DNA of 37,170 bases from an uncultured Spirochaetales bacterium (GTDB lineage Bacteria > Spirochaetota > Spirochaetia > Sphaerochaetales > Sphaerochaetaceae). The stretch spans positions 1 to 37,170 of the forward strand of contig CASDXQ010000025.1 of the NCBI GenBank assembly GCA_949285145.1. Direction: 5' to 3'. The translations under genes and the position numbers were made by a program. The notes below the pieces were generated by a model. The model made no database searches. It was not told the origin of the DNA and was given only the letters and a program-made list of their open reading frames with translations. The number at the start of each line of letters is the position of its first letter. The first letter of the stretch is position 1. Positions 17,960 through 20,838 of the stretch are shown piece by piece.

Positions 17960-18409
17960 ATGGCTAAAGTCGTTGTTGCGAATGATCACGGTGCAGTAGA
18001 ACTTGCACAGAGAATAGTAAGGCATCTTGAAAACAGAGGATATGAAGTCACATATCTCGGTACGGCTACAGAGGAATCCGTTGACTACCCCGACAAGGCA
18101 GAAGAGGCATGTCTTGAATACCTGAAAGGAGGCTATGAATTCGGTGTCGTATGCTGCGGGACAGGAATCGGCATAAGCATGGCTGCCAACAAGATAAGGG
18201 GAATAAGGTGTGCCCTCGTCTGCGATAAGTATTCAGCTGAGATGACAAAAAGACACAACAATCCCTCTTTCATCGCATTCGGAGGAAGGATGGATTACCG
18301 TGACAGCGTTGAGGATATGCTGGATGCCTTCATAAATGCTGACTTTGAAGGCGGACGCCACACAAGAAGAATCGAAAAGCTCATGGCACTGGAGAATGTG
18401 GAAAGATGA
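17960..18409 (+). CDS. rpiB: ribose 5-phosphate isomerase B / RpiB-LacAB family
   Basis: Sugar-phosphate isomerase of 149 residues interconverting ribose 5-phosphate and ribulose 5-phosphate. Motifs: VVVANDHGAVELAQ at the start, VDYPDKAEEAC, the active-site cysteine loop VVCCGTGIGISMAANK near residue 65, and KRHNNPSFIAFGGR near 98. AAGGA lies 6 bases before the chosen ATG; the 20 codons further upstream are not conserved-looking and overlap the ppaC start region. Its stop overlaps the start of the following restriction gene as ATGA, although that gene looks foreign. Confidence 0.88.
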   Translation: MAKVVVANDHGAVELAQRIVRHLENRGYEVTYLGTATEESVDYPDKAEEACLEYLKGGYEFGVVCCGTGIGISMAANKIRGIRCALVCDKYSAEMTKRHNNPSFIAFGGRMDYRDSVEDMLDAFINADFEGGRHTRRIEKLMALENVER

Positions 18410-19089
18410 ATTATGTATACGATCATTTTAGAAATATTCTAGGAAAAGAATATGAATATTCCGGCTTGGAAATTGCTTATAATATATATACGAAAGTTCA
18501 ACGGACGGAAACAGAAATCTCAGTTTTTTTGAATAAATTTTGCAATGGATTTAATTCAAGACCTTCAAAGAGAATAGCAAATCCAACAAAAACAATTGCA
18601 GATCCTCTTGTATTGGATATCCTGAAAAACAGAATCAAGGATTTATCTGACAATGAAATCCGATTAATAGGAGTCGGACATAAAGTTGCAATGGGCGCAG
18701 AAAACATTATTGGTTTGATTCTTGAAGAATATATACATTCCAAGCTAATCCGTTTTGGCTGGACATCTTGTTGGGGTAACTGCATAAAAGCAGTTGACTT
18801 CTGTTCAACAACAGGCTCGCTTCTTCAGGTAAAAAATAAAAGCAATACAGAAAATAGTTCAAGCAATAAAATCAGACAAAACACAGAAATCATAAAGTGG
18901 TACCGCTTTAATGCAAACACAGGAAAAACTAACTGGCAGTTATTAAACGATATCACACGTGTCAATAATTTGCTTACAGAAAAAGACTTTCAAGAGTTTG
19001 CATTAACCCTCATCAAAAATAATCCTAAAGCATTGTGCATCGCAAATGATGATGCACAATTCCTACTGCACTATGTTAAAACAGACTAA
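18406..19089 (+). CDS. type II restriction endonuclease, probably SinI-like
   Basis: Protein of 227 residues beside a convergent 5-methylcytosine methylase. A PD-(D/E)XK-type site is suggested by LILEEYIHSKL, then CIKAVDFCSTTGSLLQVKNK (D, then Q-x-K) near residue 135-145, followed by SNTENSSSNKIRQ and EIIKWYRFNANTGKTNW, which resemble the SinI family cutting GGWCC. The family assignment is from memory of the pattern, so the site specificity is tentative. The gene is visibly AT-rich compared with rpiB, consistent with transfer, yet its ATG overlaps the rpiB stop by 4 bases, so it has no own leader. The next in-frame ATG is about 94 codons in, so this start is the only reasonable one. Its 3' end overlaps the methylase 3' end by 14 bases. 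Confidence 0.72.
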   Translation: MNYVYDHFRNILGKEYEYSGLEIAYNIYTKVQRTETEISVFLNKFCNGFNSRPSKRIANPTKTIADPLVLDILKNRIKDLSDNEIRLIGVGHKVAMGAENIIGLILEEYIHSKLIRFGWTSCWGNCIKAVDFCSTTGSLLQVKNKSNTENSSSNKIRQNTEIIKWYRFNANTGKTNWQLLNDITRVNNLLTEKDFQEFALTLIKNNPKALCIANDDAQFLLHYVKTD

Positions 19090-20503
19090 GCTGCTCCGAT
19101 CTGTGCATTAACTTATTTTTCATCTGATTTCTAAAAGATATATCATCAGTATTTTTATATCTTGAAAACGGAAAGCCAGAGGGGGGAAGCTCTGGTGTTT
19201 TATTTTCGAGTAAACTTACAATTTGTTTTCCGATAGCCCGTCCTAAACTAACAGGAACAGCATTACCTATTTGCCTATATTTGTCCTTGATTGAACCAAA
19301 AAGTTTCCAAGTGTCTGGAAATTCCTGAATTCTTTTATACTCCTGAATACTCAATGGTCTATCATATATTGGATGACATAAATCCGTTGCAGGCATTGTA
19401 GGATCCGTTACTAAAGTAGGCGCAGGCTTAGAAAAATCCAGACGTCTTAAAAACCCTGTTTTACCACCTCCTAAATAATAAGAAGCCCCCAATGCCTCTT
19501 TTTGTAAATTAACAGGAAGATCCTTCCAATACTGGCCCTCCTTAAGCAACCTGTAATATTTTAATCTTTTTTCAGGGAAATTAAGATATTCTTGTTTATT
19601 TTCATCCAAACCGGATAATGCTTGCCCAAGCGTCTTCCACTCCGGAAGGTTATAAATGCCATTTTCACTGTTTGTCGGCTTCAGATATGGCACTCTATTG
19701 CCGTCTCTGGAACAGAAAATAATAACCCTTTCCCTCTTTTGTGGCGCCCCATAATTTGCAGCATTATAAAGATTAAAAGATACTGTATATCCTGCTTTTT
19801 CCAATTTATCCAAAATATATGCCAAGGCACCGCCTTTCTCCTGATGCGGTGTTTGAGCTGCATATCCAAAATTCTTATTATCAGGATAATCCATCATATA
19901 GGGAGCAGATAAAAGACCTCTCACGTTTTCAATTACAGCATACTTGGGTCTCAAATCTATTATTCTATTGATAAAAGTCAAAAAGACATTTCCTCTTGCA
20001 TCCTTAAAAGATTCTCTCTTTCCTGCTGTGCTAAAAGCCTGACAAGGAGGCCCTCCTATTATCAGATCAATATCTTCATCTTTTTTTAACCCCGCATAAA
20101 CTAAAATATCATCTTTGTTATACTTATTAATATCACCAATTAAGCCGATATTTGGACAATTCAATAAAATCGTTTTTCTTGTATTGGGATCAATTTCAGA
20201 AGCCAGAATAGGCTCTAATCCAGCTTGTATCAAACCTATGTCAAGCCCCATGGCACCGGTGAAAAAACTCAATACGTTATATTTGGAATCAATTTGATTT
20301 GACCTTTTCTGATCTGGAACATCCCCACATAATTGAAAAATAAGATTTCTATTTTCGAATAAAGAAGAATTAATAACCCATGTCTTACCTACCATGGATG
20401 CAGGGATAATTTTTTTTGAAATCAATAAGCGTATATATTGTGGAGTAAGGTGTAACTTCTCTGCTGTTTCACTGACGGATAGGTACTGCTTTGTATTTTC
20501 CAT
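19076..20503 (-). CDS. DNA (cytosine-5) methyltransferase with N-terminal helix-turn-helix
   Basis: Modification enzyme of 475 residues pairing with the endonuclease. It carries the C5 motifs: I (NVLSFFTGAMGLDIGL), IV with the catalytic Cys (GGPPCQAFSTAGKR), VI (VIENVRGLL), VIII (NYGAPQKRERVI) and X (QIGNAVPVSLGRAIG). Residues 7-45 (YLSVSETAEKLHLTPQYIRL...GKTWVI) form an excisionase/MerR-like helix-turn-helix, as in methylases that repress their own gene; that role here is inferred. The chosen ATG puts the helix-turn-helix at the N-terminus; an ATG at 20527 would add eight residues. No Shine-Dalgarno is seen. No separate controller (C) protein gene is present. Confidence 0.87.
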   Translation of the reverse strand: MENTKQYLSVSETAEKLHLTPQYIRLLISKKIIPASMVGKTWVINSSLFENRNLIFQLCGDVPDQKRSNQIDSKYNVLSFFTGAMGLDIGLIQAGLEPILASEIDPNTRKTILLNCPNIGLIGDINKYNKDDILVYAGLKKDEDIDLIIGGPPCQAFSTAGKRESFKDARGNVFLTFINRIIDLRPKYAVIENVRGLLSAPYMMDYPDNKNFGYAAQTPHQEKGGALAYILDKLEKAGYTVSFNLYNAANYGAPQKRERVIIFCSRDGNRVPYLKPTNSENGIYNLPEWKTLGQALSGLDENKQEYLNFPEKRLKYYRLLKEGQYWKDLPVNLQKEALGASYYLGGGKTGFLRRLDFSKPAPTLVTDPTMPATDLCHPIYDRPLSIQEYKRIQEFPDTWKLFGSIKDKYRQIGNAVPVSLGRAIGKQIVSLLENKTPELPPSGFPFSRYKNTDDISFRNQMKNKLMHRSEQLSLF

Positions 20504-20509
20504 ATACAC

Positions 20510-20539
20510 ATAATAATAAAGTACCATTATTATAGTCAA
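20510..20539 (-). promoter_or_regulatory. methylase promoter with a palindrome in the spacer
   Basis: On the minus strand TTGACT (20539-20534), 18 bases, TATTAT (20515-20510), then 6 bases to the ATG, which would make the mRNA leaderless. The spacer holds an inverted repeat, ATAATAA-N7-TTATTAT (20513-20533). This is a plausible operator for the methylase's own helix-turn-helix. Confidence 0.5.
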
Positions 20540-20577
20540 TATCTCAATCCATATGCACGTGAAACACATTTATAAAC

Positions 20578-20603
20578 AAAAAAGGACTGCAACAACACAG
20601 TCC
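20578..20603 (-). terminator. rpsU terminator
   Basis: On the minus strand GGACTG, 8 bases, CAGTCC, then TTTTTTG, 26 bases after the rpsU stop. A classic factor-independent terminator. It marks the right edge of the restriction-modification island. Confidence 0.82.
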
Positions 20604-20628
20604 CATCTTAAAAACATCAGTTAAGAGC

Positions 20629-20838
20629 TCAATAAGCTTTTGAAGCATGGATCTTGCGGACCTTCTTCATCTGCTTGCGGGCCAAAGCCTTATTCTTTCT
20701 GTTAAGGATTGTAGAGGGCTTTTCATAATACTGACGCTTTTTCCATTCGCGGATGATACCTTCTTTCTCGACCATTCTCTTGAATCTCTTGATCGATTTC
20801 TCCAAAGGTTCATTCTCGTCAACTTTTACGTATGCCAT
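20629..20838 (-). CDS. rpsU: 30S ribosomal protein S21
   Basis: Small basic ribosomal protein of 69 residues. The sequence [21 protein letters not shown] with [19 protein letters not shown] and a Lys/Arg-rich tail ending KIHASKAY is typical of bS21. The ATG at 20838 follows AAGGGGGTGATGAATAT, an unusually long anti-Shine-Dalgarno complement; the nine codons further upstream are not conserved-looking. Downstream of argD in the same direction, 101 bases after its stop, with its own terminator. Confidence 0.93.

What the first reader, a model, noticed from the sequence alone, without database searches (positions are those of the whole stretch)
18406..20503. Restriction gene coupled by ATGA to rpiB, methylase with its own promoter
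An AT-rich type II R-M pair sits between rpiB and rpsU. The endonuclease ATG overlaps the rpiB stop, so its expression appears to depend on rpiB transcription and translational coupling, while the convergent methylase has a separate promoter. This gives a built-in difference in expression without a C protein. How an incoming gene came to share a stop/start with a host gene is odd.
Basis: partly seen in the sequence, partly recalled or inferred. Interest (0 to 1): 0.55.

Follow-up and report, generated by a model that had tools for sequence, protein, structure and literature searches.

The report
Restriction island hitched behind rpiB gene
A bacterial DNA-cutting defence pair has replaced the short gap between two housekeeping genes, so that its cutter gene now starts inside the end of one of them, while its protective methylase carries what looks like its own self-control switch, a switch whose DNA pattern recurs in relatives from many bacterial groups.

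Summary
The anatomy is real. rpiB's TGA (18407-18409) overlaps the ATG (18406) of a SinI/AvaII-type endonuclease, and a convergent C5 methylase (likely start 20503) overlaps its tail. The pair is a 2,210-bp, 35% GC insert that replaces 79 bp of a close relative, including its rpiB/rpsU terminator. rpiB's last two codons and stop come from the insert, so the shared ATGA is a by-product of the junction. Another close relative has a sugar-uptake cluster there. GGWCC specificity is supported: all 12 AvaII catalytic and base-reading residues checked are identical. Upstream of 90 distinct HTH-methylase genes lies a composite palindrome (GGTAY-n-TTTCG-n4-CGAAA-n-RTACC): 84 of 90 score 16 or more of 20, against 17 of 4,172 background stretches. 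The window's copy (20482-20525) sits on the predicted methylase promoter and is the only such site in the window, though its inner half is weak. Most likely the methylase represses itself, while the endonuclease rides the rpiB transcript. Dependence on rpiB translation is not established. No expression or binding data exist.

The parts
17960..18409 (+). rpiB, ribose-5-phosphate isomerase B; last two codons and stop lie in the insert
   Evidence: PF02502 / NF004051; compared with G001 and G012
18391..18394 (+). GGAG inside rpiB, 11 nt before the endonuclease ATG; possible Shine-Dalgarno, also present in the two close relatives without this insert
18400..20609 (.). insert: 2,210 bp, 35% GC, replaces 79 bp of the G001 junction
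18406..19089 (+). SinI/AvaII-type restriction endonuclease, 227 aa; ATG overlaps rpiB stop
19076..20503 (-). C5 DNA methyltransferase, 475 aa, with N-terminal HTH_17
20294..20503 (-). N-terminal winged-HTH domain (about 70 residues)
   Evidence: HTH_17: 28.9 bits for the N-terminal 74 residues, 24.9 bits, below the cut-off of 27, when the whole protein is scanned; AlphaFold2 model, mean pLDDT 79.8, pTM 0.60; Foldseek lists Xis, BldC and RacA among weak matches, none at E <= 0.001
20482..20525 (-). predicted operator: 44-bp composite palindrome, outer half-sites GGTACT/AGTACC perfect, inner left half degenerate; right half lies in methylase codons 6-8
20510..20539 (-). predicted methylase promoter TTGACT-18-TATTAT; start of transcription would fall at about the ATG (leaderless)
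20583..20604 (-). terminator-like site after rpsU, different from that of G001/G012; lies between rpsU and the methylase
20629..20838 (-). rpsU, ribosomal protein S21

Best explanation
The insert is a type II R-M system of the SinI/AvaII kind (predicted site GGWCC) that replaced the short convergent gap between rpiB and rpsU. The methylase is a regulatory methylase: its N-terminal winged HTH is predicted to bind a composite palindrome lying on its own promoter and first codons and to repress its own gene once enough methylase exists. The endonuclease has no such operator. It is predicted to be transcribed from the rpiB promoter, with no terminator seen in between, and translated from its own GGAG-ATG and/or by re-initiation at the ATGA. 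On arrival the methylase is made at once and unrepressed, and later settles at a low level, while the endonuclease follows the steady rpiB transcript. Shown here by sequence: genes, junctions, conserved residues, HTH and the conserved palindrome. Inferred: binding, repression, transcription start, use of the rpiB transcript, and the recognition site in vivo.
For: Endonuclease family and residues. Insert junctions and the relative without it. HTH: 63 of 64 N-termini match HTH_17 at E <= 0.01; winged-HTH model. Palindrome: 84 of 90 HTH-methylase upstream regions score 16 or more of 20 and 70 of 90 score 17 or more, against 0.34% and 0.06% of 1,800 shuffles and 17 and 2 of 4,172 other 150-bp stretches of the same loci. 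A test without consensus: 35 of 90 have 9-10 of 10 symmetric pairs against 0.8% of shuffles; two of the 35 (L116, L130) are at another place than the palindrome. The two outer arms are identical in 47 of 90: GGTAC in 30, GGTAT in 13, GGTCT in 3, GGTTT in 1. Methylases whose ORF aligns only in the catalytic part: 1 of 20 scores 16 or more, and that one (L154) has an HTH just upstream in a separate frame. Endonuclease upstream regions: 2 of 65, both in divergent pairs. The best -10 lies in two main places relative to the palindrome, about 17 bp apart, as expected for a DNA operator. Precedent for self-repressing HTH methylases: passages of PMC3874152, PMC12707154 and PMC3978073.
Against: The window's copy scores 16, at the low end, with only 6 of 10 inner positions kept. 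Six of 90 score below 16 although the HTH is present (L167, L170, L174, L123, L126, L119). The consensus was read off the same sequences on which it was scored (soften this). The 90 regions are not independent. In the whole-protein scan the window's HTH_17 match is below the Pfam cut-off (24.9 against 27). Foldseek gives no match at E <= 0.001 for the HTH model. No RNA, binding or methylome data. Promoter calls in the region do not exceed shuffles, and 33 of 84 operator-bearing regions have no promoter-like match of 9 of 12. GGWCC is no rarer relative to expectation in the window (17 against 29.1) than in 15 kb of the relative without the pair (12 against 19.2).
Confidence: 0.7

Rival explanations
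1. One reading: the methylase is simply constitutive from its own promoter, and the endonuclease is kept low by polarity and translational coupling to rpiB. The HTH plays no regulatory part here, since the window's operator has decayed.
For: ATGA overlap; endonuclease has only a GGAG at 11 nt spacing; inner operator half is degenerate in the window.
Against: HTH fold and sequence kept; outer half-sites perfect and the only site of score 16 or more in the 37-kb window; other spirochaetal copies also have a weak outer-left or inner half (L117, L146, L148, L038).
Confidence: 0.15
2. The palindrome works in the messenger as a hairpin that hides the methylase start, not as a DNA operator.
For: The arms can pair and change together, and in 31 of 51 regions with a promoter-like match the predicted -10 starts 5-9 bases before the left arm, so both arms would be transcribed.
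Against: In 14 of 51, the window among them, the -10 starts 8-11 bases inside, so the left arm would not be transcribed. Half-site letters are conserved, not only pairing; mismatches (117 of 840 pair positions) outnumber G-T pairs (31).
Confidence: 0.08
3. The endonuclease has its own promoter inside the 3' part of rpiB, so it is independent of rpiB transcription.
For: In 55 of 60 endonuclease loci no same-strand ORF of 100 aa or more ends within 10 nt of a possible start, so the gene usually has room for a promoter of its own.
Against: No + strand promoter-like site between 17962 and 18406 at the scan's threshold; only 6 bases of insert precede the ATG.
Confidence: 0.12
4. Assembly artefact: the insert belongs to another organism in the sample.
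For: The genome is a 61-contig draft; the insert is 35% GC; none of the 15 other genus members carries the endonuclease.
Against: Both flanks on the same contig match G001 (423/430 and 292/302) and G012 (421/430 and 296/302); the pair is whole and of normal architecture.
Confidence: 0.05

Closest known systems
AvaII / SinI type II endonucleases (Pfam PF09570; PDB 6G3B, 6S48, 6S58)
   Same: Family match over the cut-off; E123, D147, Q161, K163 (catalysis) and H108, M112, E115, N116, N167, T168, N170, S171 (reading GGWCC) all identical
   Different: About the first 46 residues are not aligned to AvaII; start codon shared with the stop of a housekeeping gene
Regulatory C5 methylases: M.SsoII, M.Ecl18kI, M.EcoRII, M1.LlaJI, M.ScrFIA, M.MspI (passages of PMC3978073, PMC3874152, PMC12707154)
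   Same: N-terminal HTH fused to a C5 methylase (described in the passages for M.SsoII and the class), with a palindrome on the methylase's own promoter
   Different: The M.SsoII site is a 15-bp quasipalindrome in the intergenic region and also affects the endonuclease gene; here the site is typically a 40-44-bp double palindrome, reaching into the coding region in the window, the HTH is HTH_17, and the pair is convergent in 50 of 61 loci, so direct action on the endonuclease promoter is unlikely
R-M pair of Treponema saccharophilum plasmid pTS1 (NZ_AP025289.1) and of spirochaete genome G084
   Same: Convergent SinI-type endonuclease and HTH-methylase (62-63% identical), palindrome at the methylase start with scores 16 and 17
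   Different: In pTS1 the annotated same-strand upstream gene ends 135 nt before the endonuclease; in G084 no same-strand ORF of 100 aa or more was found close upstream; the start does not overlap another gene

Membership tests
SinI/AvaII type II restriction endonuclease | PF09570 match over the curated cut-off | tested here: met
   110.1 bits against 22
SinI/AvaII type II restriction endonuclease | D-QxK active site with helix glutamate | tested here: met
   E107, D131, Q141, K143 = AvaII E123, D147, Q161, K163
SinI/AvaII type II restriction endonuclease | residues that read GGWCC | tested here: met
   H92, M96, E99, N100, N147, T148, N150, S151 identical to AvaII
SinI/AvaII type II restriction endonuclease | C5 methylase next to it | tested here: met
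   PF00145, TIGR00675
SinI/AvaII type II restriction endonuclease | cleaves and methylates GGWCC | not testable with these tools
   needs digestion and methylome; site counts show no specific avoidance
Regulatory (self-repressing) C5 methylase | N-terminal HTH fused to the C5 domain | tested here: met
   HTH_17 in 63 of 64 N-termini scanned, the window's at 28.9 bits though 24.9, under the cut-off of 27, in the whole-protein scan; model
Regulatory (self-repressing) C5 methylase | palindrome overlapping the methylase promoter | tested here: met
   20482-20525 with predicted TTGACT-18-TATTAT; inner half weak in the window; promoter itself predicted only
Regulatory (self-repressing) C5 methylase | HTH binds the palindrome and represses | not testable with these tools
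   no binding or expression data
Regulatory (self-repressing) C5 methylase | shared control region that also sets endonuclease output (SsoII, Ecl18kI) | tested here: not met
   convergent pair; no second site of score 16 or more in the window
C-protein controlled R-M | separate small C gene in the system | tested here: not met
   endonuclease starts inside the rpiB stop and the two genes fill the insert but for about 106 nt

The most novel reading that the evidence does not exclude
A cross-phylum family of C5 methylases carries a fused winged HTH (HTH_17) and a 40-44-bp double-palindromic operator kept near the start codon, while the promoter takes mainly two phases along it (about 17 bp apart). 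The operator is a portable off-switch that travels with the gene and leaves the endonuclease free to be captured by any transcript at the landing site, here a housekeeping gene.
Probability: 0.55. Interest if true: 0.6.

Novelty: new variant of a known kind. Interest (0 to 1): 0.47.

Why it matters
R-M systems must make methylase before endonuclease on entering a cell. Here the order could be secured by a methylase that carries its own off-switch, so the endonuclease may be driven by whatever gene lies upstream. The operator consensus gives a direct prediction testable in dozens of R-M systems from many phyla, including plasmid and viral-contig copies, and could be used to find and group regulatory methylases from sequence alone. 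It also explains a puzzling stop/start overlap as a by-product of replacing a terminator region. My ten full-text searches did not turn up this operator; I saw only their listings and passages of a few papers, and the library is open-access only.

Tried and rejected
GGWCC avoidance as a sign of long residence: observed/expected 0.58 in the window and 0.62 in 15 kb of G001, which lacks the pair, so uninformative (whole genomes were not counted). Mobile-element ends: no shared word of 8 bases or more between the two junction neighbourhoods compared (80 and 100 bases), and the insert holds no gene other than the pair. Endonuclease control by the same operator: no second site of score 16 or more in the window. 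General coupling of these endonucleases to host genes: 5 of 60 endonuclease loci have a same-strand ORF of 100 aa or more ending within 10 nt of a possible start; besides rpiB these are a Vsr gene (L167), an IS-type transposase (L200), an ORF without a Pfam match (L204) and a TdeIII-type endonuclease (L227), so rpiB is the only housekeeping case seen. Five further loci have longer overlaps with ORFs that I did not identify (L182, L206, L209, L211, L214). Close relatives by peptide patterns of the endonuclease alone: none confirmed in genome contigs or viral contigs. RptR (PMC12255303; abstract and outline only) concerns a type I system and another site. The Psychrobacter plasmid paper PMC3346939 (passages): those passages do not concern a methylase HTH.

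Rows dropped: of 131 methylase ORFs found, 90 were kept for the operator count (alignment beginning at query residue 10 or earlier, at least 60 nt before the anchor, duplicates removed); 20 whose ORF aligned only in the catalytic part served as controls. Of 80 endonuclease ORFs, 65 distinct ones with enough upstream sequence were scanned.

Full report
Observation. The 4-base overlap is exact: rpiB ends ..GAA AGA TGA at 18409 and the endonuclease ORF starts at the ATG at 18406. The methylase is convergent. Its long ORF starts at 20569, but the seven homologs aligned with it start at the Met encoded at 20503, so the gene is taken as 19076-20503 (-), 475 aa, and the two stop ends overlap by 14 nt. 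The pair is AT-rich (35% against 47% GC).

What the genes are. The endonuclease matches PF09570 RE_SinI (110.1 bits, cut-off 22) and the AvaII structures (E 6e-23). Passages of the AvaII paper (PMC7337904) name the catalytic residues E123, D147, Q161, K163 and the base-reading residues H108, M112, E115, N116, N167, T168, N170, S171. On the alignment all twelve are identical in the window protein (numbered). GGWCC is therefore the best-supported site, by inference. In the whole-protein scans this match is just under the curated cut-offs (24.9 of 27 and 22.8 of 28.8 bits); scanned alone the N-terminus is over the Pfam cut-off (28.9 bits), and 63 of 64 N-termini of the family match.

How the overlap arose. 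One search finds two very close relatives by RpiB (99% identical). In G001, rpiB is followed by a two-way terminator and rpsU, without this insert. In G012, the same place holds solute-transport genes, a protein with LacI-family sugar-binding domains and a sulfatase (ORFs, Pfam); rpsU and rpiB stand near the ends of two contigs there, so that they face each other is inferred. None of the 15 other genus members has the endonuclease. The last base shared with G001 is 18399 and the first shared base on the right is 20610: 79 bp of G001 are replaced by 2,210 bp. rpiB thus runs for two codons into the insert and stops at the TGA that overlaps the endonuclease start. The last residues of RpiB also vary among these relatives (ENVKI, ENIEA, ENVER). 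No shared word of 8 bases or more was found between the two junction neighbourhoods compared, and the insert holds no integrase gene. Replacement by homologous recombination in the flanking genes is a reasonable guess, not shown. Draft-genome error is possible but unlikely, since both flanks on the contig match G001 and G012.

The pair elsewhere. With the methylase alignment A1, the best 80 of 299 confirmed relatives in species genomes were kept, and 19 came from viral contigs; plasmid and phage copies came. In 61 distinct loci with both genes, 50 are convergent, 4 divergent and 7 tandem. The convergent layout, often with touching or overlapping tails, is thus normal for this kind. Sixty endonuclease loci with enough upstream sequence were examined; 5 have a same-strand ORF ending within 10 nt of a possible start, and rpiB is the only housekeeping gene among them.

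The missed regulator. Reading the methylase starts side by side showed a conserved double palindrome, GGTAY-n-TTTCG-n4-CGAAA-n-RTACC (n mostly 8-10), near the start codon. Of 90 distinct HTH-methylase upstream regions, 84 score 16 or more of 20 and 70 score 17 or more; shuffles reach this in 0.34% and 0.06% of 1,800, and other 150-bp stretches of the same loci in 17 and 2 of 4,172. A test that uses only symmetry gives 35 of 90 with 9-10 of 10 pairs against 0.8% of shuffles, two of the 35 lying elsewhere than the palindrome. The outer arms change together: identical in 47 of 90 (GGTAC 30, GGTAT 13, GGTCT 3, GGTTT 1). Controls: of 20 methylases whose ORF aligns only in the catalytic part, 1 scores 16 or more (L154, which has an HTH just upstream in a separate frame); of 65 endonuclease upstream regions, 2 do, both in divergent pairs. 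Against: 6 of 90 score below 16 despite an HTH, the consensus was read off the same set, and the rows are not independent.

The window's copy. It lies at 20482-20525 with perfect outer half-sites and a degenerate inner left half (score 16), and it is the only stretch of that score in the 37-kb window. The predicted promoter TTGACT-18-TATTAT would start transcription at about the ATG, which fits the lack of a Shine-Dalgarno sequence. Of 84 regions scoring 16 or more, 51 have a promoter-like match of 9 or more of 12: in 31 of these the -10 starts 5-9 bases before the palindrome, in 14 it starts 8-11 bases inside it (the window and most other spirochaetal copies, with L141, L143 and L172 from elsewhere), and in 6 it lies at other places; two Sphaerochaeta loci (L098, L099) fall in the first group. 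A palindrome that stays near the start codon while the promoter takes two places, and whose left arm would be outside the messenger in one of them, fits a DNA operator better than an RNA hairpin. The HTH domain models as a winged HTH (mean pLDDT 79.8); Foldseek lists Xis, BldC and RacA among weak matches, none at E <= 0.001.

How it most likely works. Methylase is made first and shuts its own gene down; the endonuclease is carried on the rpiB transcript at a steady level, with its own GGAG or by re-initiation. Self-repressing HTH methylases are an established class (passages of PMC3874152, PMC12707154 and PMC3978073). What differs here is the double palindrome reaching into the coding sequence and the convergent layout, in which the operator is unlikely to act directly on the endonuclease promoter. 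The endonuclease landing on a housekeeping transcript is a one-off of this locus as far as I could see.

Verdict. The finding is real and its core reading is partly right. The overlap itself is a junction by-product; the conserved operator is the more valuable result.

Noticed in passing
L124, L125 (Acetobacter and Acinetobacter plasmids): Two SinI-related methylases without a detected fused HTH have a separate annotated HTH gene nearby and no double palindrome of score 16 or more, as if the fused regulator were exchanged for a free one; no SinI-type endonuclease was found beside the one in L124.
   Followed up: partly
L207, L227, L126: A TdeIII-type endonuclease gene lies next to the SinI-type pair (Erysipelotrichaceae MAG, an IMG/VR contig, and by annotation Streptococcus phage YS162).
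   Followed up: partly
L167 (Ignavibacteriales MAG): A Vsr mismatch endonuclease gene ends about where the SinI-type endonuclease starts.
   Followed up: no
G012 contigs C11/C12 (L107, L033): The rpiB-rpsU place holds solute-transport, LacI-type and sulfatase genes in this close relative, so the gap looks like a variable site.
   Followed up: partly
L056, L059, L060, L061 (same-genus genomes): By my reading of the sequence, rpsU is followed directly by the pyrophosphatase gene without rpiB between them; the rpiB position seems to have changed within the genus (not searched further).
   Followed up: no
window, about 18897-18910: A half-site-like GGTACCGCTTT lies inside the endonuclease gene; it encodes a WYRF stretch and may be chance.
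   Followed up: no
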